Below, piece after piece: positions 856 through 20,567 of a stretch of 20,913 nt of DNA. The notes below the pieces were generated by a model that was given only the letters and a program-made list of their open reading frames with translations, was not told the origin of the DNA and ran no database searches. A program made the position numbers and the translations under genes. The first letter of the stretch is position 1. Each line of letters starts with the position of its first letter. Source of the stretch: a virus. The stretch spans positions 1 to 20,913 of IMG/VR virus record IMGVR_UViG_3300031223_000923; one strand, 5' to 3'.

Positions 856-931
856 TTGTTTCTCGTTTCTTAATTGGATTTTACAGGTGTATTGATGTGT
901 ATTGGGTGTATTGGGTGTATTGGGTGTATTT
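843..931. repeat. Tandem GTGTATTG repeats at kfrA-like start (probable operator)
   Basis: The octamer GTGTATTG occurs at 843-850, 887-894, 897-904, 906-913 and 915-922, with a one-mismatch copy (GTGTATTT) at 924-931. The last five copies are spaced 10, 9, 9 and 9 bp. The copy at 843 lies inside the first codons of the kfrA-like gene and the others lie 30-80 bp upstream of its ATG. KfrA proteins are known to bind direct repeats upstream of their own genes, so an autoregulatory operator is the simplest reading. Iterons for the nearby initiator-like gene are an alternative. Confidence 0.6.
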
Positions 932-1446: not shown

Positions 1447-1469
1447 TCCTTTTCAACAACTGAAAAGGA
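1447..1469 (+). promoter_or_regulatory. Hairpin sequestering the ribosome binding site of the next gene
   Basis: Bases 1447-1455 and 1461-1469 form a perfect 9-bp inverted repeat (TCCTTTTCA / TGAAAAGGA) around the 5-nt loop ACAAC. The 3' arm contains the AAGGA Shine-Dalgarno sequence, placed 6 nt before the ATG at 1476. In RNA the ribosome binding site would be paired. This suggests translational control, which is common for plasmid initiator genes, though pairing in vivo is inferred. Confidence 0.55.
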
Positions 1470-1475
1470 AAAATC

Positions 1476-2255: not shown

Positions 2256-2366
2256 ATTCCCATGAGTTCCTGTTTTGGGCGTGCCGCGTCGCCCTTAGCT
2301 TCCTGACCGCCCGTTTTCCCATCAATAAAGTTTTTCTCAATCGGCGTTTGGACCCATTTGTTCTTT

Positions 2367-2777
2367 ATGAACAAACGCCTGTTAAACCTCAGAAAATCTT
2401 CTAAAGCCCTCGCAGGGTTGCCTGTGCTCTCCCAAACTCAGATCTCGAAGCGCTGGAAGCTTGATCCGGATACTGTTCGCAAGCTTCTGCGTGATCACAG
2501 CATTCCGACGGCACCGGGCCCCTGGAAAAGGGCCCGCTACGCCATATCGGAGATCTGGCGCGTCGAGGGCGTCAGCGCTGCAACGATGAGTGATCCTGAA
2601 CATCACACGGCGCTCTTTGAGCCACTATTGACGGCGAATGATCTTGCGGAATTGTTGGATTGTGTTCCTGCGACCGTCCGCAACTATGCACGCGATGAGC
2701 TTCTGAAATCCATTCGTCTTGGGACTACGATCCGCTTCCGCAGATGCGATGTGAGCGCAGTTCAGGATGGTGTGTGA
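2367..2777 (+). CDS. Small two-domain helix-turn-helix protein, excisionase-like
   Basis: This 136-residue protein has two HTH-like segments. The first (about residues 20-55) reads LSQTQISKRWKLDPDTVRKLL. The second (about 88-132) contains LLTANDLAELLDCVPATVRNYARDE, then a short wing and IRFRRCDV. The second segment matches the excisionase/MerR-like fold used by recombination directionality factors and small repressors. It lies 229 bp upstream of two tyrosine recombinase genes on the same strand, so a role in controlling recombination direction or transcription is plausible. ATG 2367 is chosen; a TTG at 2358 in the same frame would add three residues. Neither start has a good Shine-Dalgarno sequence. 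The exact family is not recognised. Confidence 0.6.
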   Translation: MNKRLLNLRKSSKALAGLPVLSQTQISKRWKLDPDTVRKLLRDHSIPTAPGPWKRARYAISEIWRVEGVSAATMSDPEHHTALFEPLLTANDLAELLDCVPATVRNYARDELLKSIRLGTTIRFRRCDVSAVQDGV

Positions 2778-3006
2778 GGGGCCTAAGGCCGACATCCGCA
2801 CCAAATGTCGAACGGCAAAAAGGTGAGGAAAAGGCCCGCTGAATGTCATCTGAACACGTTTGCTGTCCTTTTTCCTCATTCCGTTTTGAAAACGCCGAAA
2901 TGCGAAAAAAACACCTCAATACGCGTCTTGGTATTTTGAAGTTTTGGGAAAGTGCCTGGTGGACCCACCTGCCGAGTACCCCAGAAGGAAACAACAGGAA
3001 AACCTC

Positions 3007-4776: not shown

Positions 4777-6449
4777 AGAAATATACTGTGACAGAAGCAG
4801 AATTGCCAAAGCGCATGCGGAAGTTTCTCTCCGATATCGACGAAAGAAAGGTGTTTAGCGCGAAAACGCTGCGCAACAACCGGGCGGGCGTCTCCTCTGC
4901 CTTGCGCGGTCTGATTGAAACAGCGCGTCGTCACCAATTGCCCGACAAGCTGGGCCAGGACACGGCTGAGGCGTTTCTCGCTCGTCTGACGGAGGAGGGC
5001 TGGCAAAAGGGCAGCCTCATCGGGCTAAAAACGCTGCTTCGCCACTACGCCTATGAAACCGGCGAAGGTGTTGATTGGGCTCTTGCGAGTGGAGCAACGG
5101 ACCGCCGTCCGCTGGCCTTGGTGTTCAGGGCCGCGCATTGGGCACCGTTCCGGGGATTGCTCTCGGATATAGAAGCCAGCTTTACACCGCCTGAGATCCG
5201 CATGGTGGACCGCTGGCTGCGGCATAGACAGGCCCACGTGAGGGTCGACGAGGAAATGGCGGGACGGTTTGGTGGCGACGCCCGGAACTTCGCAAAACTC
5301 TCTGCGATCATGACCGTGATTGATCCAGAAAATCCCGATAATCTCGTGCTTCAACAGGTACAAAGGAAGCGCCGGCAAGCAGCAAGAGGCTACGTCAAAA
5401 AGGCCCCGAAGCTGCCGTATCATGATCTTCCGGAGCCATTCTTCGCCCAGATGGCCAAGCTCTTTGCTGGAAATTCGGGCCTGTCAGTATCGCGGCTCAA
5501 GTCGATGTGCTCAGCGCTGCGTCGTCTGTGTAGCGCCTGCGAAAGTGCTCAGATCCCTGTCGGGCTTACGATGGAAGCAGCAGAGGCCTTCGTGAACGAT
5601 CTGTTCGAAGACGATCTCGAACTGCGCAGCGTGGCGGGATATTGCGATTTTCTGGGATATTTTGCGAAGAAGGCAGGATACCCGGATGACGTATATGCGG
5701 CGCTTCTGGAAGTGCATAACGCCGTCAAACTCGACGCGAATACGGAACTGCGCCGTAAAGAGCATAAACTGGCGCAATATCCCATCGATCTCGTTGATGT
5801 CGCACTGACCGCACACACATTGCTTGATCTGGCATCTGATCAGGATGACATCCGCAATCGCAGACGCGATTACGTCCTGGCCGGTGCGGTCGCGCTGCTG
5901 AGCAAACTGCAATTGCGCAGCTTTGACCTTACACATGGTGTGGTGGGTCGTGAGTTCAGGCGTGACAGTGAAGGCTGGGTTGTCGATTTGGAGACATCCA
6001 AAACCGGCACGCCAATCAAAGGTCGTTTGGCGCCGGAGCTCACGCGTTATCTGGACGCCGTCTTGCTGATGGATGTGTCCGAAACGCACCTGTGGTCAGT
6101 GTATGGTCGAAGGATTGGTACTGCGCTTTTTGGCAATCCTGCCCAAGGCTGGACGCCGTTTGGCAAGACCTGGCTTTGACGCAATATGACAGAGCGTCTC
6201 CACCATGGCCCGCACATTGTGCGCACGTTGATCTATGACGCTGTTGCTGCGGATGCAGAACTCGACGTTGCTGTGGCACAGGCCCTTTGCGGCCACGGCC
6301 ATTTTGCAAGCCGGAAGTACTACGAGATCGGCGCCGATCGCCATCGGCGCAAGGCCGGCCTCAATACCCTAAACGCAATCGCCAGTGGGCTGGATCAAGA
6401 GGGTCCTTCTGTCCAGCACGCCCAGCACTTGAACCCGTCCGGGGCATAG
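4773..6449 (+). pseudogene. Second tyrosine recombinase, interrupted by in-frame TGA
   Basis: Reading through gives 558 positions, with a TGA at 6177-6179 in the same frame. The upstream part (468 residues, 4773-6179) has the N-terminal domains, the first catalytic Arg (LQLRSFDLTHG) and a Lys (ETSKTG). The downstream part (frame open to 6449, with an ATG at 6186 seven bases after the TGA) carries HIVRTLIYD (HxxR), GHGHF and the nucleophile in RKYYEI. Neither piece alone has the whole active site. A single C-to-T change of CGA would explain the TGA. Suppression, or rejoining of two separately made chains, cannot be excluded, but no good Shine-Dalgarno sequence lies before 6186. The gene starts inside the end of the first recombinase gene. 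Most likely this is a recent nonsense mutation or a sequencing error. Confidence 0.72.
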
Positions 6450-6459
6450 CAAGTCTGGG

Positions 6460-6476
6460 GCGGGGCGATGCCCCGC
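6460..6476 (+). terminator. GC-rich hairpin after the recombinase pair
   Basis: GCGGGGC (6460-6466) and GCCCCGC (6470-6476) form a 7-bp stem with the 3-nt loop GAT, starting 11 bases after the recombinase reading frame ends. No T-run follows, so it is at best a weak terminator or an mRNA-stabilising structure. Confidence 0.35.
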
Positions 6477-6518
6477 GCTGAGGCGAATAAAGGATGGGCT
6501 GGCTTAGTTTCTGTTTTG

Positions 6519-6544
6519 CTTGCTGCCTCTTTGTGAGCAGCAAG
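6519..6544. repeat. Perfect 8-bp inverted repeat in a 207-bp gap
   Basis: CTTGCTGC (6519-6526) and GCAGCAAG (6537-6544) are perfect inverted repeats around a 10-nt loop. They lie between the second recombinase and the next gene. There is no U-tract on either strand, so an operator or a recombinase-binding site is as likely as a terminator. The rest of the 6450-6656 gap holds a strong AAGGAGG at 6596-6602 without an obvious start codon to serve. Confidence 0.35.
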
Positions 6545-6656
6545 AAAAACATAAAATCAGGCCTGCTTGACGTAAATGAAACCACGCGAGGGAGAAAGGA
6601 GGAGTCCGACCTCGTGCTTGTCCGCCAGCGGAGGCGGGAAAACGAAGGATATCCGA

Positions 6657-7031
6657 ATGACACGGACACACTTACTGGCGCTGATAAAATCCTACATCGC
6701 GCAATACGATATCGACATCCAGCACGCAGTTTTGCTGCTTGGCGGCCGTCCCGCTTTAATGCGGTTGCAACGCTTTCGGCGCGCCATGGCTGGGAAAAAC
6801 CCCAAGCTCTACCACCTGCGCCGTGAGCTCAACTGGCTGTGCGATTTGCTCAGCCTGGAACACGTCGGAGACATCGACAGCGATGAGTCTGGCTACTTCG
6901 CCGACATCGACCCAAACGACGATGCTGTTTGGACGATATGCATACTGACCGACATCGCACAGGGGCTACTGGACGGGTTTGACGACATCTCTGACGCAGT
7001 TTGGGATGATCAAGGCGAGGTGGCAGCATGA
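6657..7031 (+). CDS. Small acidic protein of unknown function
   Basis: The product is 124 residues and I do not recognise it. It has a basic N-terminal third (LRRELNWL, RLQRFRRAM) and a very acidic C-terminal half with Asp-rich stretches (DIDSDES, DIDPNDDAVW) and a hydrophobic segment TICILTDIAQGLL. There is no signal peptide. ATG 6657 has GAAGGA seven bases upstream. Its stop overlaps the next start as ATGA at 7028-7031, so the two genes are translationally coupled and their products may interact. It follows the recombinase pair on the same strand, so it may be an accessory protein of that element. An acidic protein coupled to an Arg-rich partner also resembles the layout of an inhibitor or antitoxin pair, but nothing in the sequence proves that. 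Confidence 0.6.
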   Translation: MTRTHLLALIKSYIAQYDIDIQHAVLLLGGRPALMRLQRFRRAMAGKNPKLYHLRRELNWLCDLLSLEHVGDIDSDESGYFADIDPNDDAVWTICILTDIAQGLLDGFDDISDAVWDDQGEVAA

Positions 7032-7441
7032 GCTATATTCGCCGAGTAGAGACCCTCGAAACGATGGCAGCACGCGCAATCGGGGAGGGCTGTAATTTTG
7101 GAGATGCTTACGCTCGCATCGGCCCAAGTCTCACCACCCATCACCGCCGTACGTTGCCGCAGACGTTGGCGCGGTTAGAGTGCGGCAATGTCATCGACGA
7201 GCGGGACGACGACTGCATCGCAGCCATGGGTGACGCACTCGTCGAGGCCGCCAACGAGCGGTCGGCCGGCTACGGAACCCGCGTTCTCAATGTTTCCACC
7301 TACGAAGACCTGCTCTTTGACAAAAAGCTCGAAGAATTACGGTGGTTGATCCTGCGGTGGGACAGCTTCGCCCGGGTCCGCAGGCAGGTGCGGGCGCGGT
7401 TGGCTGCACGGCTGTTGCTCGCGGACGTTGGCGAGACCTGA
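7028..7441 (+). CDS. Small protein of unknown function, coupled to the previous gene
   Basis: This 137-residue protein is not recognised. It looks all-helical. An N-terminal helix (MSYIRRVETLETMAARAI) and a segment resembling an HTH (GDAYARIGPSLTTHHRRTL, about residues 25-43) are followed by an acidic stretch (VIDERDDD). The C-terminus is strongly basic (LRWDSFARVRRQVRARLAARLLL). A nucleic-acid-binding role is possible. Translation starts inside the previous gene's stop (ATGA), and a hairpin follows 16 bp downstream, so this appears to be the last gene of the unit that includes the recombinases. Confidence 0.55.
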   Translation: MSYIRRVETLETMAARAIGEGCNFGDAYARIGPSLTTHHRRTLPQTLARLECGNVIDERDDDCIAAMGDALVEAANERSAGYGTRVLNVSTYEDLLFDKKLEELRWLILRWDSFARVRRQVRARLAARLLLADVGET

Positions 7442-7456
7442 GTTCTAAAAAGTAGG

Positions 7457-7477
7457 AAGCCGCAACAGTGCGGCTTT
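7457..7477 (+). terminator. Probable intrinsic terminator
   Basis: AAGCCGC (7457-7463) and GCGGCTT (7470-7476) pair perfectly around a 6-nt loop and end in TTTC, 16 bases after the stop of the preceding gene. The T-run is short. The remaining sequence to 7659 holds no gene I can support. Confidence 0.5.
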
Positions 7478-7659
7478 CTGCGGCTTTCAATGGGAATGAA
7501 AGGACGCCGGGAGTTGTCTTTGGGTAAGTTTCAGTCGGCTTTGCAACAAAAGAGACCTGTGTCAAAAGATCACCCGACTGATACGGTCTTTCAGACTGTG
7601 GCCTTGGACTATGCCCTTAGCATCTCTCTTGAAAAATTACGGGGCCAGTAACTTGCCAG

Positions 7660-8292
7660 TTATTCAGTGATTGCCTCGGAGGTGTACAAAATGGGGCCAA
7701 TATTCGTGTTTGGGCCAAAATTCCGATTTAGCAATTGACCATCCGCAATATAAAGATTGCGTAACAGATAGGTTTGAGTTTGGCCCATAACTTTTAGGGC
7801 CATTGCGTCACCATCATCCGTTGGCACAATCGTTATTGCCGCGTCTGCCGACGCGACGCTCTCGACAACTCTTCTCACCTCATATGGATCAGTGATCCGC
7901 TCTACCTGAAAATAACAAGCTCCCTCAAAGGCTCCAACGCCGATGATTGCTATACCCCCTACAACAATTGTTGCGGGTGCCATTAGAATTGCTCCAACGG
8001 TCCCTGCAATGCCGCTCGAACCAGCGATTATCCCGACCGTGCCAGCAGCAGACGCGCCAGCAGCGGTAGAGCCAAGCATGGTAAGACCAGACCCTGCGTG
8101 AACCAAAGTATAATAACCGGCTGCTTGCATACCGACGCCAGCGGCAGCGCTGCCACCTGTTATTGTGGCTCCCAACGCAGTGGCAGCACCGCCGATAAGA
8201 TTTGAAGGCTTGTAGTCGCACATCTCTGCATGCGCATTTCCAGCGAGAATGATCGCAATAGCAGCATAAGTTGAAGTCGCTAAAATTTTCAA
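7660..8292 (-). CDS. Secreted Gly/Ala-rich protein of unknown function
   Basis: The 210-residue product begins with a clear Sec signal peptide (hydrophobic core YAAIAIILAG, likely cleavage after AHA at residue 22). The mature part starts EMCDYKP and then runs through about 95 residues of Gly/Ala-rich hydrophobic sequence with many GxxxG-type spacings (GGAATALGATITGG, GSTAAGASAAGTVG, VVGGIAIIGVGAFEG). This glycine-zipper-like pattern suggests membrane insertion or oligomerisation. Two Cys (in EMCDY and GACYF) could form a disulphide. A soluble domain follows, ending near ILYTSEAITE. The start is a TTG at 8292 with AGGAA five bases upstream. It has no operon partner: its neighbours end or start over 180 bp away. 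It may be a cell-envelope or pore-type protein carried as island cargo; that function is inferred. Confidence 0.65.
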   Translation of the reverse strand: MKILATSTYAAIAIILAGNAHAEMCDYKPSNLIGGAATALGATITGGSAAAGVGMQAAGYYTLVHAGSGLTMLGSTAAGASAAGTVGIIAGSSGIAGTVGAILMAPATIVVGGIAIIGVGAFEGACYFQVERITDPYEVRRVVESVASADAAITIVPTDDGDAMALKVMGQTQTYLLRNLYIADGQLLNRNFGPNTNIGPILYTSEAITE

Positions 8293-8475
8293 AGCGGTTC
8301 CTAACTGGCCTGAATCTGGATGTGCCCGATCTTAAAAGACGTTTTTTACAGTGCCGCTATTTTGATTTCCATTCAACTGAATAAAGTAGAGTACCATATC
8401 GTTTGGGGTTTAATCGCGACCAGTAATCCAACGTGAAGGGCTTATGTTTGCTTGCGATAAGTCGAAGATAAAGGG

Positions 8476-10614
8476 CTACCTCACCAGTCGAAGCGGCGAT
8501 TGCGCTGCACTACCTTCGGCACGATCAATACGCTTTCCAAAGGGACTTTTAACCATTGAAAGATCAAATGCGACCGCCTCGATAACTACATTTAGGGTCG
8601 CAACCGAGATACCGTTCTGAGAGTAAGAAATCTCCCCTTCATCCAAAGGGCGATGCCCAAGTATGCGGCGCTTAGCGTAGCCCGGAACCAATTTATCAAT
8701 GAGTGCGTGGTGAAAAGTCGTACGCAGTGCATGAAAATCAAGCCCGCGCCAGTAGACATTGTTTGCTTGCCGATACTTGGTAAAGTCTTTGGTGAAAAGT
8801 TCTGAGTAAGTTTGCTTGTTTTTGCCGCGTTGAAGGTATGGAAAGAGGCGGGGTTCCCCCTCTTTGAGACGGAGGGCGACCAGTTCCAACAAGCCGAGGC
8901 GAATAAGCTCAGGATGAACTGGAATGAGCCGGTGGCCAGATTCTGACTTGATGCTCTGTCCTTCTCCGTTTGTCAGCCGATAATAGTGTATTCCACCATC
9001 GGCTTCGAAATCTTTTGGTGAAAGCTGCAAAAGTTCTTCCTGCCGGGCTCCTCCTAAAAGTGCCATCAAAGGTGCCCAAAAAAGGGGATCGCCAACTCCA
9101 TCAGTCTGGCCTTGGAAAACGCAAGTGTTCAAGAGCTTATAGATCCGATCATCCCAAGGACGGCGATCACGTTTCTCTTCCTGTTTTCGCATAGCAGTCT
9201 CCGACCTTGCGCTGATCATGTGCTTTACAAAAGGGCTGGCAGCCACTTCACCCAGCTTTACCAACATTTTTCCTGGACGATTTAAGGCTCGAGTGTGTTT
9301 CACGATCGTTTCCACACGCAGTCGTGGGATGCGGGCGTTAAGTTTTGCTTGTTCTATTTTGGCAGGGGAGGCGCCGGCCATCTTTGCATTGTTAACGGCA
9401 ATCTCGATCTCGCGTGCTTCTTTTACGTCGGTTTCTAACACCAAACTGCGCAGATCTCGCGTTTCCGAACAACTTTTGCCATGCGTCTCTGGAAGACGCC
9501 TCATCAGCGCCTTCGCTTCTCTAACATCCTGATCAAGAATTTCAAAATACGGTCTGTTTCCTAACAGGCTAACCCAAATGCGCTTGCCTACAAGCAACCC
9601 GTTTTCACTTGATTGGGCCCATTTTTTTCCAGTCGCGGCGTCAGGCACCTCTTCGCTACCAAATTCATCAGTGTATCCGGATTTCTTCCTGGTGATGTAT
9701 TGGTCGAACGCATCTGCAAGCAAAAGCGGTTCAGTTTCGGATCGCTCTGATACGATAATGCGATCTGAACGCATTGGATCGTTCGCTGGTACGCCTAACT
9801 GCGGACTTGCAGGGAATTCTTGCACTGCCTTTGATGCGTTAACTGGTTGATCTGCGATCTCAGAAGCGGGCAGTTGCTCCACGGGGAGAGTGATAGGGAG
9901 CGACGATACGCCTGTTTCTGCCAAGCGAGAGGTGGTCGTTTCGCTCTCACGACACTCTTGATGTGTAGACGCAAAGCCTGCCGGTGAATATGCCGCTTTC
10001 TGAGAATTAGGGACTGGGGCTGTCCGTGGTAGATCCATGTTGGTTGCATGCCGAAAATAAACAGAAGGACCATCATAGTCGCCTCGATCGAGCCGCGCGC
10101 GTTCCTCGCTGATGTTGATAAGAACGCGGGTCGCCTCGACAGCGAGAGTATTCCAAGCTTCAATGCAGTCAGGAAGATCAACGCCTAATCGAGCGGCAAC
10201 GTAGGCAAGAGGCGCTCGCGCAACGTTCCAATTACGCAAGAAGATGGCTTCACGCAGCGTCTCTTGCAGTGCGACCTCACGCTTCGATGCCATTTCAGCT
10301 TGAACAAGGCTGCGAGGTCCAGAGGTCGCGCGACCTTGTTCGAATGCCGCAATTTCAAAGCGAACCAATTCGGTCAGTAGCGTCATCATCAAAACTGGAT
10401 CCATATCAGGACATCCCCTCGCATAATCTATGGCGAGGGAGCTCAACGCCGTAAGGCGCGCGGCTAATTCTCTCGCGTCAGAGGGGACGTCGGTTCGCAA
10501 AGAAAAAATAAGAATGCGGTTTGACCCGCAATTTTTTGGGCTTGGAAGACGGCGACGCCAGTAGAAATTGCTTGGACGTTTTTCCAAATGAGGGGTGCGA
10601 TTGTACCGTTTCAC
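8476..10614 (-). CDS. Large tyrosine integrase beside tRNA-Asn
   Basis: The 712-residue protein has a complete tyrosine recombinase C-terminus: Arg in GGARQEELLQL, Lys in SIKSESGHRLIPVH, HALRTTF (HxxR), LGHRPLDEG and the Tyr in EISYSQNG. Its N-terminus (HLEKRPSNFYWRRRLP) is the 'Y-x-RRR-x-P' region typical of DUF6538-type integrases. An unusually long linker with low-complexity stretches separates it from the core-binding domain. I place the start at GTG 10614, which has AGGAAG nine bases upstream. A longer frame to 10704 would begin inside a terminator stem. It reads away from the tRNA-Asn fragment only 137 bp upstream, the usual position of an island integrase next to its attachment site. 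It probably belongs to a different element from the one on its right. Confidence 0.85.
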   Translation of the reverse strand: MKRYNRTPHLEKRPSNFYWRRRLPSPKNCGSNRILIFSLRTDVPSDARELAARLTALSSLAIDYARGCPDMDPVLMMTLLTELVRFEIAAFEQGRATSGPRSLVQAEMASKREVALQETLREAIFLRNWNVARAPLAYVAARLGVDLPDCIEAWNTLAVEATRVLINISEERARLDRGDYDGPSVYFRHATNMDLPRTAPVPNSQKAAYSPAGFASTHQECRESETTTSRLAETGVSSLPITLPVEQLPASEIADQPVNASKAVQEFPASPQLGVPANDPMRSDRIIVSERSETEPLLLADAFDQYITRKKSGYTDEFGSEEVPDAATGKKWAQSSENGLLVGKRIWVSLLGNRPYFEILDQDVREAKALMRRLPETHGKSCSETRDLRSLVLETDVKEAREIEIAVNNAKMAGASPAKIEQAKLNARIPRLRVETIVKHTRALNRPGKMLVKLGEVAASPFVKHMISARSETAMRKQEEKRDRRPWDDRIYKLLNTCVFQGQTDGVGDPLFWAPLMALLGGARQEELLQLSPKDFEADGGIHYYRLTNGEGQSIKSESGHRLIPVHPELIRLGLLELVALRLKEGEPRLFPYLQRGKNKQTYSELFTKDFTKYRQANNVYWRGLDFHALRTTFHHALIDKLVPGYAKRRILGHRPLDEGEISYSQNGISVATLNVVIEAVAFDLSMVKSPFGKRIDRAEGSAAQSPLRLVR

Positions 10615-10699
10615 GCTGCGACTCTTCCTGTCTTCGGGGCGCGCAAATGCGCCAGTTGTGACGAGCGGAGTGCACCAGATGTGCCCAGAAACGAGAAAA

Positions 10700-10723
10700 G
10701 GCACCCGCAGGGGTGCCTTTTTT
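10700..10723. terminator. Bidirectional terminator downstream of tRNA-Asn sequence
   Basis: GGCACCC (10700-10706) and GGGTGCC (10711-10717) form a 7-bp stem with loop GCAG. Six T follow on the plus strand (10718-10723) and four on the minus strand (10699-10696). It lies about 30 bases beyond the tRNA 3' end, so it would end minus-strand tRNA-Asn transcripts when a complete gene sits here. Confidence 0.75.
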
Positions 10724-10750: not shown

Positions 10751-10799
10751 TGGCTCCGACGGTAGGGATCGAACCTACGACCAATTGATTAACAGTCAA
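10751..10799 (-). other. Attachment-site core: 3' fragment of tRNA-Asn(GTT)
   Basis: On the minus strand this reads as tRNA positions 28-76: the 3' part of the anticodon stem-loop with anticodon GTT, variable loop, T arm with GGTTCGATCCC, the acceptor 3' strand ending CCGTCGGA, and GCCA. Identity breaks at position 27, and the sequence to the right has no D arm or 5' acceptor strand. It is therefore a 49-bp fragment, not a working gene. Such a fragment is the att copy left when an element integrates into a tRNA 3' end. The complete tRNA-Asn should lie at the other end of the element, beyond the window. Confidence 0.85.
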
Positions 10800-12929: not shown

Positions 12930-13130
12930 ATGGAACAAAAACTAATTTCTGCGGCAGCGGTTCGCGATCTATGCGGCGGCGTCACCGATATGACAATCTG
13001 GCGTTGGCTACATCATCCGACTTTAGGCTTTCCAAAGCCCATTAAGATCGGGCGGCGCAACTATTGGCGCGAAACTGAATTGTCAAAGTGGCTGGAACGT
13101 CAGGCCGAAGAGTCGCGGGGGGTTATGTAA
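12930..13130 (+). CDS. alpA: AlpA-family regulator/excisionase
   Basis: A 66-residue protein with the AlpA/excisionase layout: LISAAAVRDLCGGVTDMTIWRWL (helix-turn-helix), FPKPIKIGRRNYWRETEL (wing with the family's 'FPkPi.ig.r..W' signature) and a short final helix. AlpA proteins act as transcriptional activators or recombination directionality factors, and in Gram-negative phage satellites AlpA is the usual activator of the replication and excision genes. ATG 12930 follows AAGG by seven bases. Its stop overlaps the next start (TAATG), so it leads a coupled operon through the helicase gene. Confidence 0.85.
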   Translation: MEQKLISAAAVRDLCGGVTDMTIWRWLHHPTLGFPKPIKIGRRNYWRETELSKWLERQAEESRGVM

Positions 13131-13576
13131 TGATCCCCAAAATAGAAACCCCCGGTGCGTCTGGTAACGCGACCGAGGGCGAATTTGAAACAGGGCAGTT
13201 TCTCACTTCACAATATCGCATCCGCAAGGAATGGGCAATCGCGGCGTGGTTCGCACTGGATCATTGCGACCGGCAGGACATACTGCATATCTGCGAAACG
13301 TTGCTTGCCGATCTTGTAACTGATGGGCCAACGCTGGGCGATCCGTTTGGCATGGTCGCTTCTGATGCGCTGTTTTGGGCTGAATGCGCCCCTGCGCATG
13401 AGCTTGCGGCTTATGGCTGCGCAGCACTCGAAAAGCTGCATGGCCGTTCGCTTGGTATCAATATCCGAAAGCGGCTGTTTGCGAAGCTCTGGAAGGCTTT
13501 TGACAAGCGCGATCGGCTGGCATTTCTGGCGCGTGTCGATGTTGAGGGCAAGTTTCTGAATCGGGGGGCAGTATGA
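13130..13576 (+). CDS. Unknown protein between alpA and helicase
   Basis: The 148-residue protein is not recognised. It is mostly helical with no signal peptide, and its segments are a hydrophilic N-terminus, EWAIAAWFALDHCDRQDILHIC, LFWAECAPAHELAAYGCAAL and the basic RKRLFAKLWKAFDKRDRLAFLARV. The position between AlpA and a RepA-like ATPase, with ATG-stop overlaps on both sides (13130 and 13573-13576), argues for a replication or regulatory accessory role. A G-run at 13117-13122 serves as ribosome binding site. Function is unknown. Confidence 0.65.
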   Translation: MIPKIETPGASGNATEGEFETGQFLTSQYRIRKEWAIAAWFALDHCDRQDILHICETLLADLVTDGPTLGDPFGMVASDALFWAECAPAHELAAYGCAALEKLHGRSLGINIRKRLFAKLWKAFDKRDRLAFLARVDVEGKFLNRGAV

Positions 13577-14724
13577 ATATGCACGATCCTTTTGCAGACT
13601 TGCCCCCGGATGATCGTTTCGCACCGATGGACAGTTATTCCCCCTCACAAAGCACATCTGCACCCTTCGTTTTTGTTGCCGTGGGTGATCTGGAATATAA
13701 AGAACCAGAATTCCTAATTGACGGGCTAATCGAGACGGACACTTTAGGCATGATCTTTGGTGATCCGGGATGCGGCAAGAGCTTTGTTGCTGTGGATATC
13801 GGCCTGAGCGTTGCCAGCGGCACTCCTTTTCACGATAGGCCGGTTAAGCAAGGATCTGTGTTTTTCATCGCTGGAGAGGGTCACAACGGGCTGGCGAGAC
13901 GCTTTGCAGCATGGGCGAAAGATAGGGGCGTGTCTTTGGCCGGGGTTCCGCTGTTCAAATCCGAGCGAGCGGCACATTTTCTTGACGCTGCGAGCGCAAA
14001 GGCTGTGTCAAAGTCTGTCGATGCTTTGGCTAAGTCGCACGGTGAACCAACGCTCATTATTGTCGATACCGTTGCGCGCAACTTTGGTGCGGGCGATGAA
14101 AACTCGACAAGCGATATGAGCAATTTCATCGCAGCAATCGACGATCTGAAAGCGCGCTATCCGGGCTGTGCCGTGCTGCTGGTGCATCATTCGGGCCATG
14201 GTGACAAACAGCGCGCGCGCGGTGCTATGGCATTAAAGGGCGCGTTGGATTGCGAGTTTCGAATTGAACCGGCGGAAGGCGTCGCAATGCAAATCGTCAA
14301 TACGAAGATGAAGGATGCAGAACCACCTGCGCCAATGGCTTTCGTCTTTCATCCTGTGGATCTTGTTGGCGGTGCAAAGAGTGTGGTTCTTAGGGCGACG
14401 GAAGCACCGGAGCGGCAGACCCGCGTTTCCCCGTCGCAAAAGCTGGGAGTTAAAACCTACACCACCGCAGCGACCAGCGGCGGCGTTTGGGATGATGGTG
14501 CGTTTCGTGGCGTCCATGTCGATCATTGGCGTGATGCTTTCTATGCCAAGCACACCGGCGATAATACAGATGCGAAGAAGAAAGCATTCCAGCGGGTTCG
14601 TTCTGAACTGGTTAACAGTGGTAAGATGAAGGTGGAAAGCGATGTTTACCTAATAACTGACGGGACTATTCAAACCGAAATCATGGTTGAGCGGGACAGA
14701 CGGGACATAGCGGGACATTCGTGA
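13573..14724 (+). CDS. RepA-like hexameric helicase ATPase (AAA_25)
   Basis: The 383-residue protein has the RecA-type core of RSF1010 RepA-like helicases: Walker A GDPGCGKS (63-70), FIAGEGHNG (98-106, contributing the catalytic Glu), Walker B LIIVDT (161-166), LVHHSGHG (203-210) and the arginine-containing loop RARGAMALKGALD (214-226). Such enzymes unwind DNA at the origin. The C-terminal 90 residues look like a separate winged-helix-type domain (FRRVRSELV equivalent near 340-350). It is the last gene of the alpA operon, and its 3' end runs into a dense repeat cluster that could be the replication origin. No primase accompanies it. Start ATG 13573, or ATG 13579 two codons on. Confidence 0.82.
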   Translation: MNMHDPFADLPPDDRFAPMDSYSPSQSTSAPFVFVAVGDLEYKEPEFLIDGLIETDTLGMIFGDPGCGKSFVAVDIGLSVASGTPFHDRPVKQGSVFFIAGEGHNGLARRFAAWAKDRGVSLAGVPLFKSERAAHFLDAASAKAVSKSVDALAKSHGEPTLIIVDTVARNFGAGDENSTSDMSNFIAAIDDLKARYPGCAVLLVHHSGHGDKQRARGAMALKGALDCEFRIEPAEGVAMQIVNTKMKDAEPPAPMAFVFHPVDLVGGAKSVVLRATEAPERQTRVSPSQKLGVKTYTTAATSGGVWDDGAFRGVHVDHWRDAFYAKHTGDNTDAKKKAFQRVRSELVNSGKMKVESDVYLITDGTIQTEIMVERDRRDIAGHS

Positions 14725-14843
14725 AATTGTCCCGACGCAGAAGCCGGATGAGACGGGACAAGCGGGACAAGCCCTTAAGGGCTGTCCCGTGTCCCGCCTG
14801 CTCTGACAGCCTGATGAGTGAATTATGCGGGACAAACGGGACA
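14692..14843. repeat. CGGGACA repeat cluster (candidate origin or packaging region)
   Basis: CGGGACA occurs seven times on the plus strand (14692, 14701, 14711, 14754, 14763, 14828, 14837) and three times inverted as TGTCCCG (14728, 14783, 14790). Neighbouring direct copies are 9-10 bp apart. Between 14763 and 14789 an inverted pair flanks the perfect 14-bp palindrome AGCCCTTAAGGGCT (14770-14783), making a long near-perfect hairpin with one bulged base. The cluster starts in the last codons of the helicase gene. It looks like an iteron-type origin for the helicase; packaging-site or operator roles are alternatives. Confidence 0.6.
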
Positions 14844-14884: not shown

Positions 14885-14918
14885 TGGTAAGCAATGCTGA
14901 CCTATATTGGGAAATATG

Positions 14919-15461
14919 ATGCTGACGATCGAGCGCACACCGATAGCAACCGGGCCAACCGTAGAGGCGGCATATCTCAATGAGCATATGCGTCTCGATG
15001 ATGATCTGTCGGATGGCGTGGCGCTGTACGTTGATGCGGCATCTGCGGAGGTAGAGGGCTACTGCGCGCTGGCCTTGCTGGATCAGACAATCACCACCAC
15101 CACCGACAACCTACCGGATCAGCACCTTGCCTTGCCTATCGGGCCAGTGGCAGCGGGCGCGACGATCACCGTCGACATGCTGGAGATGGACGGCACCACC
15201 ACACCTGTTGAGGGCTATTGGCTGGAGTACGGGCGCTATCCCGTCCTGCACTTCACCAGCACACCCGGCGGGCGTCTGCGGATCACCTACACCGCAGGCT
15301 ATGGCGACACATCGGCGGACATTCCGGCGGATCTGCGCATGGCTGTCTGTGACCTAGCTGCACGGCTGTACGATTACCGCGCGAGTGAGAAGGCAGCGAC
15401 CATGCCAGCGGCCACGGCGCGGATCTGCGCGCGCTATCGTCGTGTGAAGGCGGGCGCGTAG
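14919..15461 (+). CDS. gp6-like head-tail connector (phiE125 gp8 family)
   Basis: The 180-residue product matches the gp6-like connector layout: an N-terminal 'yLn.hmRlddd.sD..l..yvdaA...vE.yc' helix pair, a middle beta region starting LALPIGPVAAGATITVDML, then LRITYTAGYGD and IPADLRMAVCDLAARLYDYR, the family's C-terminal helix. Such proteins form a ring between the portal and the tail. It opens the packaging operon and is followed one base later by the terminase. ATG 14919 has GGGA six bases upstream; ATG 14916 and TTG 14907 are in-frame alternatives. Confidence 0.8.
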   Translation: MLTIERTPIATGPTVEAAYLNEHMRLDDDLSDGVALYVDAASAEVEGYCALALLDQTITTTTDNLPDQHLALPIGPVAAGATITVDMLEMDGTTTPVEGYWLEYGRYPVLHFTSTPGGRLRITYTAGYGDTSADIPADLRMAVCDLAARLYDYRASEKAATMPAATARICARYRRVKAGA

Positions 15462-15462
15462 A

Positions 15463-17049
15463 ATGGTCCCAATGCCCCCGATTGTGAATAGGGCCCGGAC
15501 CGTTGATGGGACTAGCGATTGCGCGCGTTCTGATGATCTGGCCGACAAAACTTTAGACTTTATCCGCTCGCTTCGTATCCCCGAAGGGCCATTGCACGGG
15601 CAGCATTTCAGCCTTGCGCCATTTCAGGAGGAGTTCGTTCGGGGCTTTCTTGCGCCCGATGTAATGACGGCGATCCTCTCGATCGGGCGCGGTCAGGGCA
15701 AGAGCATGCTGTCGGCGGCGTTGTGTTTGGCGCACCTGATGGGCGTGAGTGATCCGCAACCACGGCGGCAAGTGATCGTCGCGGCCAGGGTAAAAGAGCA
15801 GGCACGGATTGCGTGGGAATATGTCCAGGCGCTTGTGCAGCTCTTGCCCGAAGAAGAACAGGAGCTGTTCACGTTCCGGCAGGCACCACGGCTAGAGATC
15901 AGCTATGAAGGCAACGGCGGCGGGATGATCCGCGCGGTAGCGGCTGACGCAAAGAACCTGCTAGGACTTTCGCCCACCCTTATCTGTGAAGATGAGTTCG
16001 GACACTGGCACCCTGACAAGGGCATGCAACTGCACGCGGCGCTGGAAACATCGGCAGGCAAGCGGCAGGCAAAGACAATCATAATCAGCACAAGTGCCAG
16101 CGACGACACGCACCCGCTGTCGCAGATCCTCGACACGCCACCGCCTCACAGTTTTATCATTGAATGTCGCGCACCTTTGGGCATGCCTGCTGATGATCTG
16201 GACGGATTGAAGGCGGCAAACCCCGGCTCTGAGCATGGCATCGGGCCTTCTCTGAAATGGCTACAGGAGCAAGCACGTGTTGCTATCCAACGCGGCGGAC
16301 AGGCTCTTACCGGGTTCCGGCTGTACTCCCTCAATCAACGTGTCTCTGATGTAGGCAAGGCACAACTGCTGACTGTAGACGAATGGCAGGCGTGCGAGGT
16401 CGGCGACGATGAATTGCCCCCGCGCGATGGCATGTGCATCCTTGGCGTGGATCTGGGCGGTTCCCGTTCAATGTCGGCGGCGGCGCTGTACTGGCCCAAC
16501 ACTGGCCGATTGGAGGTTCAAGGGGCGTTCCCTCAAAACCCCGGCTTGGCGGAACGTGGCGAGGCTGACGGCGTAAAAGATCGTTACCTACGCATGCACG
16601 AGCGCGGCGAGCTGACCACCACCGGGGAGCGCACGGTTCAAGTCGGGCCTTGGCTTCGTCAAGTCTGGGATGAGCTGGTAAAGGAGGCCGAGGTTACGGC
16701 GCTTATTTGTGATCGGTATCGCCAAGCCGAGCTATTAGACGCCTTGGCGGCGGCTGGTATTCGCGTCCCTGTTATCTTTCGCGGGCAGGGTTTCCGGGAT
16801 GGCGGGCAGGACGTGGAAGGTTTCCGCAAAGCTGTCTTTGACGGCGTAGTGCAAACCCGGCCTTCCCTGCTGATGAGATCGGCGGCGGCTGATGCGCTTG
16901 TGGTCATTGATGATGCGCAGAACGCGAAGCTCACAAAATTGAGAAGCCTTGGTAGAATTGACGCAGTAGCGGCTTCCATCCTTGCGGTAGCCGAAGGCCA
17001 GCGGCGTATCGCGGCACCGACAAGAAAGGCGCGTTTGGCATGGGCATGA
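15463..17049 (+). CDS. terL: Phage terminase large subunit
   Basis: The 528-residue protein has both TerL domains. In the ATPase, the Walker A-type motif is GRGQGKS (75-81) and Walker B TLICEDE (172-178), with a coupling-type motif at TIIISTSAS. In the RNase H-like nuclease, acidic residues Asp330 (LGVDLGG), Asp417 (LICDRY) and Asp483/484 (VVIDDAQNAKL) form the expected metal-binding set. It pumps DNA into the head through the portal and cuts it. Length and motifs suggest a complete, working gene. It starts two bases after the connector stop and overlaps the adaptor start by 10 bp. No small subunit is adjacent, although one normally precedes TerL. Confidence 0.92.
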   Translation: MVPMPPIVNRARTVDGTSDCARSDDLADKTLDFIRSLRIPEGPLHGQHFSLAPFQEEFVRGFLAPDVMTAILSIGRGQGKSMLSAALCLAHLMGVSDPQPRRQVIVAARVKEQARIAWEYVQALVQLLPEEEQELFTFRQAPRLEISYEGNGGGMIRAVAADAKNLLGLSPTLICEDEFGHWHPDKGMQLHAALETSAGKRQAKTIIISTSASDDTHPLSQILDTPPPHSFIIECRAPLGMPADDLDGLKAANPGSEHGIGPSLKWLQEQARVAIQRGGQALTGFRLYSLNQRVSDVGKAQLLTVDEWQACEVGDDELPPRDGMCILGVDLGGSRSMSAAALYWPNTGRLEVQGAFPQNPGLAERGEADGVKDRYLRMHERGELTTTGERTVQVGPWLRQVWDELVKEAEVTALICDRYRQAELLDALAAAGIRVPVIFRGQGFRDGGQDVEGFRKAVFDGVVQTRPSLLMRSAAADALVVIDDAQNAKLTKLRSLGRIDAVAASILAVAEGQRRIAAPTRKARLAWA

Positions 17050-17381
17050 GTGCAAGCAAACTCGACCGCCGTATCGTGATCACGCGGGCCGAAATGATAG
17101 ACGATGGTTACGGCAACGTGACGGGCGAATTTGAACCGATCGGCACCATCTGGGCAAACCGTTCCGACATTAAGGACGGCGAAAAGGTATTGGCGGGCGC
17201 TGTCACGTCTGACCTGCAAACCCGCTTCACCGTGCGCAGTTCTGCATTTTCGCGGGGCATAAACCCGACCGATCGTATCTGGCACGCTGGCCTAGAGTTC
17301 AACATCACGGGCGCGAAGGAAAGCGCAGACGGGCGGCTAAACTTTATCGAGCTGACCGCGACCGCGAGGAACAACGGATGA
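17040..17381 (+). CDS. Head-tail adaptor / head closure protein
   Basis: The 113-residue protein has the SPP1 gp16-type adaptor pattern: an N-terminal LDRRIVITRAE strand, DGYGNVTGEFEPIGTIWANRSDI, then ARFTVRSSAF-like strands and RIWHAGLEFNITGAKE, ending LIEL-type. These small beta-barrel proteins close the filled head and dock the tail. It overlaps terL by 10 bp and the HNH gene by 4 bp (ATGA), so it is in the same operon. A second ATG six bases on (17046) is an alternative start. In a satellite it would provide the interface for a helper tail. Confidence 0.8.
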   Translation: MGMSASKLDRRIVITRAEMIDDGYGNVTGEFEPIGTIWANRSDIKDGEKVLAGAVTSDLQTRFTVRSSAFSRGINPTDRIWHAGLEFNITGAKESADGRLNFIELTATARNNG

Positions 17382-17710
17382 AAGAGCATTTCCGTCATAG
17401 CAAGCGCGTCACCTCGACGAAGCGATGGCAGGCTGTTCGCCATGCCGTCCTAGAGCGCGATGAATGGGCCTGCGTGCAGTGCGGAGATCGGCGGCGGCTG
17501 GAGGTGGATCATATCCACCCGGTACGCACCCACCCGCAGCACAGTTTCGACCCGGCGCAATGCCAGACGCTATGCGCGTCCTGTCACACCAAAAAAACCA
17601 GAATTGAGTGCGGACACAAACCGACACCACCCGACCGCCAAGCGTGGCGGGATTCTATCAGCGCAATGATGCGCGAAACCACCGAGCATAAAGGAAAACA
17701 CATTGCTTGA
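17378..17710 (+). CDS. HNH endonuclease of the packaging module
   Basis: The 110-residue protein has the compact HNH fold: CVQCG (first Cys pair), LEVDHIHPV (DH metal/catalytic pair), then CQTLCASCHTKKT (second Cys pair and final His). HNH proteins next to terminase genes are needed for DNA cutting and packaging in HK97-type phages and in capsid-forming satellites. It is coupled to the adaptor by an ATGA overlap and its last 8 bp overlap the capsid gene. An unlinked homing nuclease is unlikely given the operon position and size. Confidence 0.88.
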   Translation: MKEHFRHSKRVTSTKRWQAVRHAVLERDEWACVQCGDRRRLEVDHIHPVRTHPQHSFDPAQCQTLCASCHTKKTRIECGHKPTPPDRQAWRDSISAMMRETTEHKGKHIA

Positions 17711-18938
17711 ATCATTGAAAATCACCCGCCGTCAATCCGAGATCCGCCAGAACCTTGCGGAGCTGGTAGGCAAACCGACACCCACCGAGGACGAAACCCG
17801 CAGCATGGATAAGCTCGATCAGGAATACCGCACAAACGAAACGCGGTTCCGTGCGGCGCTGGTATCCGAGGACGAACAACGCGACGAAGCCAAGGGCGAG
17901 CTGGAAACCCGCAGCGGCAAAGAATGGGCCGAAATGATGGGCAAATTCGAGCTGCGGCAAGTGGCGTTTGCGATCGACGAAGGCAAGGCACTGAGCGGGG
18001 CCACCGCCGAGATCGTGGAAGAAATGCGCAACGCGGGCGGCTATCAGGGCATCCCGGTTCCCTACGCTGCATTGGAAACCCGCGCGGGCGAAACGGTATC
18101 AACCGGGACACCATCCCCCGAAATGATCCGGCCCATTATCGACCGGATCTTTCCCGGCAGCGTGGCCGAGCGTCTGGGCGTCCAACGTATCAACATCGCG
18201 CAAGGTTCTGTGGCTTTCCCTGTCGCAACGGCTGGCGCTGTGTTCGGATGGCAGACAACCGAGCTTGGTGACGTTGGCGCTGCTGCTGCTTACGCCACCA
18301 GTGAGCGCAGTTTGGCACCGGATTACACGGGCGGCGCGCAAATGGTTATCAGCCGCAAGACGCTGAAACAATCTGGCGAAGGTTTGGAAGCTGCTATCCG
18401 CCGGGATCTGAACGCGGCGATCGGCACCGAGCTGGACCGCGTGGTTATCAACGGCAGCGGCGCGGCGGGCCAGCCTTTGGGGTTCATCCCCGGCGCTGTC
18501 ACCTATGGCATCGCTGTGGAGGACGTGAGCGCAGCGGCAACATGGGCGGCGTTCCGTGCCGAGATCGTGGCGTTTATGGAAGCCAACGCGATCACCAGTG
18601 CAAGCCAAGTCAATCTGGCCTTTGATCCTGCGATCTGGGCAGATCTGGATGATACGCTTATCAGCGGGACCGCCGTGAGCGAATGGGACCGCCTGACAAA
18701 GCACGTTGGCACCCCGGCGATCAGCAATGTGATCCCGACCGAAACGGCGATCATGACGGCCAACGTGCAAGGCATCGCGCCGGGTTACATGGGCCTGTAT
18801 GGCGGCGTGGATCTTATCCGCGACCCCTACACCAAGGCGGGATCTGGGCAGCTCGTTTTGACTGGCCTTGTCACTGCGGACTTTGTGGCACCGCGTGGCC
18901 TGCAAACCCGTATCCTGACCAACTTGGCGGCAGCATAA
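17703..18938 (+). CDS. HK97-family major capsid protein
   Basis: The 411-residue protein has the HK97 capsid arrangement: an N-terminal coiled-coil delta domain (about residues 1-100) that the protease removes, then the shell domain with SPEMIRPIIDRIFPGS, the VINGSGAAGQPLGFI signature of the family, and the C-terminal GVDLIRDPYTKAGSGQLVLTGLV. It forms the icosahedral shell. The start is TTG at 17703, with AAGGA seven bases upstream; it overlaps the HNH stop by 8 bp. The rare start codon on a highly expressed structural gene is odd. Its stop overlaps the protease start (TAATG). Confidence 0.9.
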   Translation: MLESLKITRRQSEIRQNLAELVGKPTPTEDETRSMDKLDQEYRTNETRFRAALVSEDEQRDEAKGELETRSGKEWAEMMGKFELRQVAFAIDEGKALSGATAEIVEEMRNAGGYQGIPVPYAALETRAGETVSTGTPSPEMIRPIIDRIFPGSVAERLGVQRINIAQGSVAFPVATAGAVFGWQTTELGDVGAAAAYATSERSLAPDYTGGAQMVISRKTLKQSGEGLEAAIRRDLNAAIGTELDRVVINGSGAAGQPLGFIPGAVTYGIAVEDVSAAATWAAFRAEIVAFMEANAITSASQVNLAFDPAIWADLDDTLISGTAVSEWDRLTKHVGTPAISNVIPTETAIMTANVQGIAPGYMGLYGGVDLIRDPYTKAGSGQLVLTGLVTADFVAPRGLQTRILTNLAAA

Positions 18939-19492
18939 TGCTTTGGGGCGGTAACAAAGGCACGCTGGAGATCAGGGCCGAGGGCGGTACAACCCGCCTT
19001 CGTGCCACGTTCCCCTATGGTGCAGAAACCGAGCTGGCACCGGGGCGGCTGGAAGTTATCGCCCCGCGCGCCTTTGCCGATCGTATCAATGGCGGCGGCG
19101 AAATTCACCTACTGGCAGGGCATAGCTATGACAAACCATTGGCAAGCCGATCAGCCGGCACTTTGCACCTGACCGACACCGACGAAGCGTTACAGATCGA
19201 GGCCACCCTCGACGATGGCACGAGCTGGGCGCGGGACTTTCTGGCGGCAAATGCGGCCGGGTTAATTCGCGGCCTATCCCCCGGCTTTCGCGTGGCACCG
19301 GATGGCGAGCGGATCGAGCGGCGCGGCGACGGTATGTTGCGCACCATTGGCAAGGCGGACTTGATGGAGATCAGCGCAGTGACGCGCGGGGCATATCCAG
19401 CGGCACAAATTGAGGCGCGGGCGTGGGGCGTCTGTACCAAGTTGGTACACAACGATGGCCTGCACCGCACCCTAAACCGATGGAGGGCATAA
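18938..19492 (+). CDS. HK97-family prohead protease
   Basis: The 184-residue protein fits the prohead serine protease family (U35): the catalytic His62 in LLAGHSYDKPLAS and Ser114 in RGLSPGF, with the family's 'G.l.G.S.gF' form. A Glu/Asp third partner is likely in ADLMEISAVTRGAYPAA near the C-terminus. It cleaves the capsid delta domain and itself during maturation. ATG 18938 overlaps the capsid stop (TAATG); a longer upstream frame inside the capsid gene is a shadow. It lies between capsid and portal, the reverse of the usual portal-protease-capsid order. Confidence 0.88.
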   Translation: MLWGGNKGTLEIRAEGGTTRLRATFPYGAETELAPGRLEVIAPRAFADRINGGGEIHLLAGHSYDKPLASRSAGTLHLTDTDEALQIEATLDDGTSWARDFLAANAAGLIRGLSPGFRVAPDGERIERRGDGMLRTIGKADLMEISAVTRGAYPAAQIEARAWGVCTKLVHNDGLHRTLNRWRA

Positions 19493-19493
19493 C

Positions 19494-20567
19494 ATGGGCC
19501 TGATGGATATTTTCCGGCGCTCTACCAACTTGGTAAAGCACGAAACCCGATCATCCGGCACGGGCTACACGGCGACAATCATGGCAGCGCGTGAAAGCTG
19601 GTTCTCTGGGCAATCGGGCATGGCGGAGCTAACAAGCACCGTGCAAAGCTGTGTAAGTCTCTGGGAGGGCGCATTGGCGGCGTCTGATGTATCCGGCACC
19701 GACATGCTGGACAGACGCACGATGGCGCTGGCGGGGCGTTCTCTGGCCTTGCGTGGCGAGTTCGTGGCGCTGATTACCGGGGACGGCATTGTCCCGGCGT
19801 CTGACTGGGATATTAGCACCCGCAACGGCATCCCGCGCGCATATCGCGTTAGCATCGCAGAGGCAGGCGGCGCGAGATCCGAAACGGCATTGGCGGGCGA
19901 GATCCTGCACTTTCGCATTGGTTCTGATGCTGTGACACCGTGGACCGGGCAGGCACCTTTGACACGTTCGGGGCTGTCGGCATCCTTGCTGCAAGAAGTC
20001 GAAACCGCCTTGCGTGACGTGTTCCGGGATGCGCCGATCGGTTCGCAGATTGTGCATCTGCCCGATAGTTCCGCCGAGGATATGGAGATGATGCGCGCGG
20101 CGTTCCGGGGTAAGCGCGGTTCAACCCTTGTGATCGAGGGCGTGGCGCAATCGACGGCGGCGGGCATGAATCCGCAGCTAGGGCAAAAGCCTGACCAACT
20201 GTCACCGGATCTGCAAAAGGCGATGCACATAGAGGCGCTGGCAGCGGCACAGGACGGCGTTGCGCTGGCCTTTGGTGTGTTGCCGTCAATGCTGACACGA
20301 TCGGCACAGGGCAACACGATCAGGGAAACAGGCAGACAACTTGCTGTGTGGACGCTGCAACCCATTGCGGATCTGATGGCCGAGGAAGCCACCGCCAAGC
20401 TGGGCGGCACCGTCTCGATCGACACCATGCGCAACCTGCAAGCGTTCGACGTGAGCGGACGGGCGCGGGCCATGAAAACGATCATCGAAGCGATGGCAGC
20501 GGCAAAGGCGGCGGGAGTTGATCCGGCGGCGGCGCTGCATCTGGTAGACTGGGGCAAAAATGACTAA
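19494..20567 (+). CDS. HK97-family phage portal protein (short)
   Basis: The 357-residue product has the features of HK97-type portals: an N-terminal MDIFRR, SCVSLWEGALAASDV (matching the family's 'v..cv..ia..va..p' helix), a beta core with ILHFRIG, SLLQEVETALRDVF, then a long helix with TIRETGRQLAVWTLQPIADLMAEEATAKLG, the family's C-terminal hallmark. It forms the vertex channel for DNA. It is about 60 residues shorter than typical HK97 portals, mainly in the N-terminal half, and this may be a satellite adaptation. GGAGG lies eight bases before ATG 19494. It is the last gene of the operon. Confidence 0.82.
   Translation: MGLMDIFRRSTNLVKHETRSSGTGYTATIMAARESWFSGQSGMAELTSTVQSCVSLWEGALAASDVSGTDMLDRRTMALAGRSLALRGEFVALITGDGIVPASDWDISTRNGIPRAYRVSIAEAGGARSETALAGEILHFRIGSDAVTPWTGQAPLTRSGLSASLLQEVETALRDVFRDAPIGSQIVHLPDSSAEDMEMMRAAFRGKRGSTLVIEGVAQSTAAGMNPQLGQKPDQLSPDLQKAMHIEALAAAQDGVALAFGVLPSMLTRSAQGNTIRETGRQLAVWTLQPIADLMAEEATAKLGGTVSIDTMRNLQAFDVSGRARAMKTIIEAMAAAKAAGVDPAAALHLVDWGKND

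What the first reader, a model, noticed from the sequence alone, without database searches (positions are those of the whole stretch)
14692..14843. Ten CGGGACA repeats with a long hairpin at the end of the helicase gene
Seven direct and three inverted copies, many 9-10 bp apart and centred on a near-perfect palindrome, begin inside the helicase's last codons. This pattern fits an iteron origin used by the RepA-like helicase or a packaging (cos/pac) region next to the capsid operon.
Basis: partly seen in the sequence, partly recalled or inferred. Interest (0 to 1): 0.6.

Follow-up and report, generated by a model that had tools for sequence, protein, structure and literature searches.

The report
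Satellite replication origin read by helicase
The repeats are almost certainly the docking sites where a virus-like satellite's own DNA helicase starts copying its DNA; many related elements use the same layout with different 'letters', and the letters change together with a few amino acids in the helicase, which makes this lock-and-key pairing directly testable.

Summary
In detail: ten exact CGGGACA copies (7 direct, 3 inverted) in 14692-14843, three of them inside the helicase's last codons, around a palindrome with a CTTAAG centre. Chance is excluded. In relatives L004 and L007 the copies are 98-100% conserved while the spacers are only 37-49% identical.

The best explanation is an iteron-type replication origin bound by the adjacent AAA_25 (RSF1010-RepA-like) helicase through its own C-terminal winged helix. 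Dense arrays lie at the 3' end of 42 of 59 non-redundant homologous helicases, against 5 of 120 control gene ends. The layout is often kept while the repeat word differs (CGTGACA, CGTTACA, TGTCCCA, AAGTGGG and others). The word tracks the predicted recognition helix better than the rest of the protein. In 86 enterobacterial loci one helix residue (Asn/His/Gly) pairs without exception with AAGTGAG/AAGTGGG/AAGTGCG; there helix and array are swapped together as a cassette.

The cos/pac reading is not supported: Rhizobium phage 16-3 has such an array 3.6 kb from its annotated cos.

The principle (origin directly 3' of rep, read by Rep's C-terminus) is known from SaPIs and other PICIs. New here: the helicase family, a conserved CT-W(1-6)-AG palindrome, occurrence in ordinary phages, and a readable code. 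No experiment was run.

The parts
13573..14724 (+). AAA_25 (RepA-like, RecA-fold) helicase, 383 aa, proposed initiator
   Evidence: Pfam AAA_25 E=3e-36; only solved relative RSF1010 RepA 1g8y; AF2 model pLDDT 84
14431..14655 (+). C-terminal winged-helix domain of the helicase (aa 287-361)
   Evidence: AF2: H287-303, E310-315, H316-326, H332-348, E352-355, E358-361; winged-helix folds at the top of the VIA-align list, Z up to 8
14566..14616 (+). predicted recognition helix (aa 332-348, TDAKKKAFQRVRSELVN)
   Evidence: 11-column windows within aa 331-347 rank 1-6 of 337 in predicting the iteron word after correction for core divergence
14692..14717 (+). iterons 1-3, direct, spacing 9 and 10, inside the helicase CDS
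14728..14734 (-). iteron 4, inverted
14754..14769 (+). iterons 5-6, direct pair, spacing 9, left side of the palindrome
14770..14782 (.). palindrome core AGCCCTTAAGGGC (CT-TA-AG dyad)
   Evidence: CT-W(1-6)-AG dyad with arms of at least 4 bp in 27 of 48 arrays, 0 of 342 control gene ends
14783..14796 (-). iterons 7-8, inverted pair, spacing 7, right side of the palindrome
14828..14843 (+). iterons 9-10, direct pair, spacing 9
   Evidence: kept in L004, L007, L015, not in L006
14844..14918 (.). A+T-rich stretch between array and next gene; possible but not conserved melting region
   Evidence: not A+T-rich at this place in L004
10959..12197 (+). tyrosine integrase of the element
   Evidence: Pfam Phage_integrase E=7.6e-17
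12930..13130 (+). AlpA-like HTH protein (excisionase/regulator)
   Evidence: HTH_17 E=4e-4 and PHROG 66, both weak
14907..20567 (+). head and packaging genes: head-tail adaptor, TerL, head completion, HNH, HK97 capsid, prohead protease, portal

Best explanation
The array is the element's replication origin. Each CGGGACA is a binding site (iteron) for the C-terminal winged helix of the RepA-like helicase encoded just upstream. Several helicase subunits bound to direct copies about one helical turn apart, and to inverted copies on either side of the CCTTAAGG palindrome, would nucleate helicase rings at the palindrome, open it and start replication after excision. Shown: the array, its conservation, its position behind this helicase family, and the covariation of iteron word with recognition helix. 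Inferred: direct binding, opening at the palindrome, ring loading and bidirectional start.
For: Dense repeat arrays at the 3' end of 42 of 59 non-redundant AAA_25 helicase genes versus 5 of 120 control gene ends. Layout '+++ - ++ [palindrome] --' recurs with different words. Partial Mantel, 33 loci: iteron word vs recognition helix r=0.51, p=0.0005 after removing helicase-core divergence; core after removing helix r=0.18, p=0.07. Scan of all 337 protein windows: recognition helix ranks 1-6. L020 vs L023, helicases 90% identical: one base of the word changes (GGGGCA to GGGACA) throughout the array, with a substitution cluster in the helix. 86 enterobacterial loci: Asn/His/Gly pairs one-to-one with AAGTGAG/GGG/GCG (36/45/5, no exception), and 10 of 10 independent tree pairs agree, p=0.002. 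Iterons 98-100% conserved against spacers 37-49% in L004 and L007. Predicted winged helix. Precedents: the PICI origin lies immediately 3' of rep and a cloned rep-ori replicates (PMC6092414); SaPI Rep reads iterons with its C-terminal domain (PMC7581432).
Against: No binding, replication or coverage data. 17 of 59 helicases fell short of p 0.01 in my array test (e.g. L029, L032, L055, L087), so the arrangement is not universal or my detector misses some. No conserved A+T-rich melting region is flanked by the window's iterons. GC skew was uninformative. The helix and the array sit close together and are exchanged together in enterobacteria, so linkage contributes to that part of the coupling. 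Iteron words and 11-residue helices for one search were curated by hand, and the words for too.
Confidence: 0.82

Rival explanations
1. Packaging start: the array is a cos or pac site next to the head operon, recognised by the terminase.
For: It lies between the replication genes and the head-tail adaptor/TerL genes in the window, and repeats next to cos are known for other phages (general knowledge).
Against: Phage 16-3 has a 15-site array behind its helicase at about 56.25-56.6 kb while its annotated cos is at 60186-60195. In phage CRP-406 the terminase genes are not next to the array. In L014, L020 and L030 the gene after the array does not look like a packaging gene (my reading of the sequence). 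The word covaries with the helicase helix.
Confidence: 0.04
2. Operator: the helicase, or AlpA, binds the array to repress or time transcription of the downstream head operon, with no origin role.
For: Position between early and late genes; a helicase that reads the sites could also regulate.
Against: No sigma-70-like promoter or terminator was found within the array or just downstream to 15000. Arrays are kept whatever gene follows (phages and E. coli islands). An AlpA operator would not covary with one helicase residue.
Confidence: 0.06
3. RNA element: the hairpin acts in the transcript as terminator, attenuator or stability structure.
For: The stretch folds better than shuffles (DNA parameters, z=-2.8), and changes on both arms keep pairing.
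Against: No U-tract terminator in the array and no Rfam family above its gathering score. Direct, non-pairing copies change in concert with the inverted ones, which a hairpin does not require.
Confidence: 0.03
4. Incompatibility or copy-control locus (handcuffing iterons) that titrates the helicase, with strand opening occurring elsewhere.
For: Iterons commonly do this in plasmids (general knowledge); no obvious A+T-rich opening region is conserved in the window's group.
Against: The conserved CT-W-AG palindrome between inverted iterons looks like a start structure; the functional PICI origin occupies the same place (PMC6092414).
Confidence: 0.05

Closest known systems
Gram-negative PICI origin, e.g. 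EcCICFT073 (PMC6092414; CFT073 1,377,930-1,388,654)
   Same: Iterons immediately 3' of the replication gene. E. coli islands with an AAA_25 helicase (L042, L136) have much the same gene order: Icd-like, DUF4222, rep, ori, SSB, capsid.
   Different: EcCICFT073 Rep is a D5_N/DUF5906 (SF3-type) protein with GTAGAC-type iterons around an A+T-rich stretch. Here the helicase is AAA_25 (RecA/RepA type), and in the window group the centre is a CT-W-AG palindrome instead of a long A+T-rich region.
SaPI Rep / ori
   Same: Initiator helicase reads iterons directly downstream of its gene with its C-terminal domain (as summarised in PMC7581432).
   Different: Different Rep family; here the specificity is traced to particular recognition-helix residues and their bases.
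RSF1010 RepA/RepC/oriV
   Same: Helicase core is homologous to RepA (1g8y, E=8e-9).
   Different: In RSF1010 a separate protein (RepC) binds the iterons (general knowledge); here a winged helix is appended to the helicase itself.
SCCmec Cch2 / putative ori (PMC7581432)
   Same: C-terminal domain of the helicase binds direct repeats downstream of the operon.
   Different: Cch2 is a 3'-to-5' helicase, treated in that paper as an equivalent of SaPI Rep; no iteron recognition code was reported in the passages I read.
Capsid-forming PICI (cfPICI) satellites
   Same: Integrase, AlpA-like protein, rep, HK97 head and packaging genes.
   Different: Element ends and helper phage not established here; the cfPICI reference paper was not held.

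Membership tests
PICI-type replication origin | Lies immediately 3' of the rep gene | tested here: met
   Array overlaps the helicase stop codon and follows 42 of 59 homologous genes
PICI-type replication origin | Multiple iterons in more than one set | tested here: met
   Ten sites in several sets
PICI-type replication origin | Two iteron sets flank an A+T-rich region | tested here: not met
   The window has a short CTTAAG palindrome between inverted pairs and no long A+T-rich stretch between sets; E. coli AAA_25 relatives do have an A+T-rich middle
PICI-type replication origin | rep plus ori drives autonomous replication | not testable with these tools
   Needs an experiment; among Gram-negative PICIs shown for EcCICFT073 (PMC6092414)
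Iteron origin read by its own initiator helicase | Initiator has a DNA-binding domain specific for the iteron | tested here: met
   Indirect: winged helix predicted and helix/word covariation; no binding assay
RSF1010-type oriV | Separate iteron-binding protein RepC beside RepA | tested here: inconclusive
   No RepC-like Pfam, PHROG or NCBIfam match among the element's proteins scanned; the iteron word tracks the helicase itself
cos/pac site | Site coincides with packaged genome ends | tested here: not met
   Relative only: in phage 16-3 the array is 3.6 kb from the annotated cos; not tested in the window element
cfPICI satellite | int, AlpA, rep and HK97 head/packaging genes without tail genes | tested here: inconclusive
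   All listed genes are present (AlpA-like match weak) and no tail gene was identified, but the right attachment site was not found in the window
cfPICI satellite | Induced and tailed by a helper phage | not testable with these tools
   Experiment needed

The most novel reading that the evidence does not exclude
A widespread class of phage and satellite replicons in which a RecA-type (RepA/AAA_25) helicase is its own origin-recognition protein. A C-terminal winged helix reads the iterons by a simple residue-to-base code (in the enterobacterial group Asn-A, His-G, Gly-C at one position). The central CT-W-AG palindrome is where the helicase rings are loaded. Specificity evolves by exchange of a 'recognition helix plus array' cassette that leaves the motor intact, independently of whether the attached primase is Prim-Pol, Toprim or absent.
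Probability: 0.55. Interest if true: 0.72.

Novelty: new variant of a known kind. Interest (0 to 1): 0.56.

Why it matters
It identifies the likely replication start of a large, mostly unannotated family of phage and satellite replicons from sequence alone. It names the protein domain and the residues that read the start site, and gives a natural set of specificity switches. That makes origin recognition, replicon compatibility between co-resident satellites, and helicase loading without a separate initiator testable in simple E. coli plasmid assays.

Tried and rejected
cos/pac reading: rejected because phage 16-3's annotated cos is away from its array. Terminator/promoter/RNA family: none in the array; the only Rfam hit, mir-7558 at 23 bits, is far below its gathering score of 80. 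GC skew as an origin test: in the two genomes where the minimum is clear (L133, L134) it falls near the transcription divergence, 1-3 kb from the array, and the window shows no switch; uninformative. Attachment-site repeat between both element ends: none of 11 bp or more found in the flanks searched. Foldseek against PDB with the C-terminal domain gave only weak winged-helix regulators (E at least 0.05); the VIA second look gave generic winged-helix domains, including origin-recognition-complex subunits, at Z up to 8, too general to name a relative. Automatic motif seeds were wrong for L008 and L063, so words for the test were set by hand and L008/L063 left out. Literature: no paper found that describes iterons for AAA_25/RepA-type phage or PICI helicases, but the figure with E. 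coli PICI iterons in PMC6092414 cannot be read here and the cfPICI reference paper is not held, so an earlier description of the E. coli type is possible.

Full report
Observation. Three lie in the helicase frame before the stop at 14722-14724. Shuffles of the whole window give 2.6 copies on average; ten in 152 bp is not chance. The hairpin is CGGGACAAGCCCTTAAGGGCTGTCCCG, one unpaired base from perfect.

Context. The window is an IMG/VR virus record. It carries an integrase, an AlpA-like HTH protein, an unknown 162-aa protein, the AAA_25 helicase, the array, then head-tail adaptor, TerL, head completion protein, HNH, HK97 capsid, protease and portal. This fits a capsid-forming satellite, but the right end is not delimited.

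Relatives. Homologous helicases were collected from genome and viral contigs, phages, plasmids and whole genomes. In L015, L004 and L007 the ten sites are 98-100% conserved while the spacers fall to 86, 49 and 37%. In others the same place holds the same kind of array with another word: CGTGACA (L017, phage 16-3), CCGGACA (L014), TGCCCCA (L020), TGTCCCA (L023), CGTTACA (L073), GGGGTACA (L075), AAGTGAG or AAGTGGG (E. coli islands) and more. Of 59 non-redundant helicase loci, 42 reach p<=0.01 in a shuffle test, against 5 of 120 other gene ends in the same loci. The layout '+++ - ++ palindrome --' recurs, with small variations, in L047, L054, L064, L073 and L075 among others.

Palindrome. A dyad CT-(A/T)1-6-AG with at least 4 paired bases on each side occurs in 27 of 48 arrays and in 0 of 342 control gene ends. 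CT/AG is the commonest of all 16 possible dyad dinucleotides; the next has 10.

Which protein reads it. AlphaFold gives a RecA-like core and a C-terminal winged helix, helix 332-348 being the recognition helix. Across 33 loci the iteron word follows the 11-residue helix (partial r 0.51, p 0.0005) after removing helicase-core divergence, while the core adds little once the helix is known (0.18, p 0.07). A scan of all 337 windows of 11 alignment columns puts the recognition-helix windows at ranks 1-6. Between L020 and L023, helicases 90% identical, one base of the word changes throughout the array, together with a cluster of helix substitutions at aa 572-583.

Enterobacterial test. In 86 loci the residue Asn, His or Gly in the first turns of the helix pairs with AAGTGAG, AAGTGGG or AAGTGCG as the array's commonest word, with no exception (36, 45, 5); a few arrays hold a single odd copy (L164-L166). 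On a tree of the helicase without its last 46 codons the label changes 16 times; ten independent pairs on well-supported branches all agree (sign test p 0.002). Cores 98-99.8% identical can carry arrays only 64-74% identical and 3' ends 77-94% identical, and near-identical arrays sit behind cores 82% identical. The helix and array therefore move as a cassette. This explains how all copies change at once. It also means that physical linkage contributes to the coupling here, so the deeper families are needed as independent support.

Not a packaging site. Phage 16-3's cos is annotated at 60186-60195; its array lies at about 56.25-56.6 kb. Terminases are not next to the array in CRP-406. In complete phage genomes the words cluster at the array.

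Known precedent. PICIs have their origin immediately 3' of rep, with two iteron sets around an A+T-rich region, and the EcCICFT073 rep-ori segment supports plasmid replication (PMC6092414). Its Rep is a D5_N/DUF5906 protein with GTAGAC-like repeats; sibling E. coli islands have the AAA_25 helicase with AAGTGNG repeats in the same slot. SaPI Rep reads iterons with its C-terminal domain (PMC7581432). The window's array thus works like a PICI origin, but one listed feature (an A+T-rich region between iteron sets) is not met, so I file it as a variant.

Confidence. Iteron origin read by the helicase: 0.82. Shown by computation: array, conservation, association, covariation. Inferred: direct binding, opening at the palindrome, replication start. 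No experiment was run.

Noticed in passing
window 10751-10798 (- strand): Looks like the 3' half of a tRNA-Asn gene just upstream of the integrase, a likely attachment site; ARAGORN finds no complete tRNA in the window and no matching repeat was found at the right end.
   Followed up: partly
L003:9120-9280 (also L016): Mixed array with both CGGGACA and CGGGCCA copies behind a helicase with the usual AFQRVR helix; possibly an array in transition or decay.
   Followed up: no
E. coli islands L141-L220: Helicase 3' end plus array is exchanged as a cassette between elements with 98-99.8% identical helicase cores.
   Followed up: partly
E. coli islands L042/L136 vs EcCICFT073 (L221:6242-8285): Same slot between DUF4222 and the SSB operon holds either an AAA_25 helicase with AAGTGNG iterons or a D5/DUF5906 protein with GTAGAC iterons: whole replication modules are interchangeable.
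   Followed up: partly
L029, L032, L055, L072, L074, L076, L087: AAA_25 helicases without a detectable array at their 3' end; their origin may be elsewhere or the repeats too degenerate for the test.
   Followed up: no
L134:19400-20150 (Alteromonas phage PB15): Another array behind a Toprim-AAA_25 helicase, word GGTTCAC around ACACCTTATAGGTGT.
   Followed up: no
window 1-10704: Left of the satellite: a KfrA_N-domain protein (1-948, -), two large ORFs without Pfam match (2944-4776 and 4773-6179) and a DUF6538/tyrosine recombinase (8476-10704, -); probably another mobile element or host island.
   Followed up: no
L009:7974-8975 and L044:4346-5491: Helicase frames look interrupted (truncated C-terminus in L009, split frame in L044) while an array is still present downstream.
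   Followed up: no
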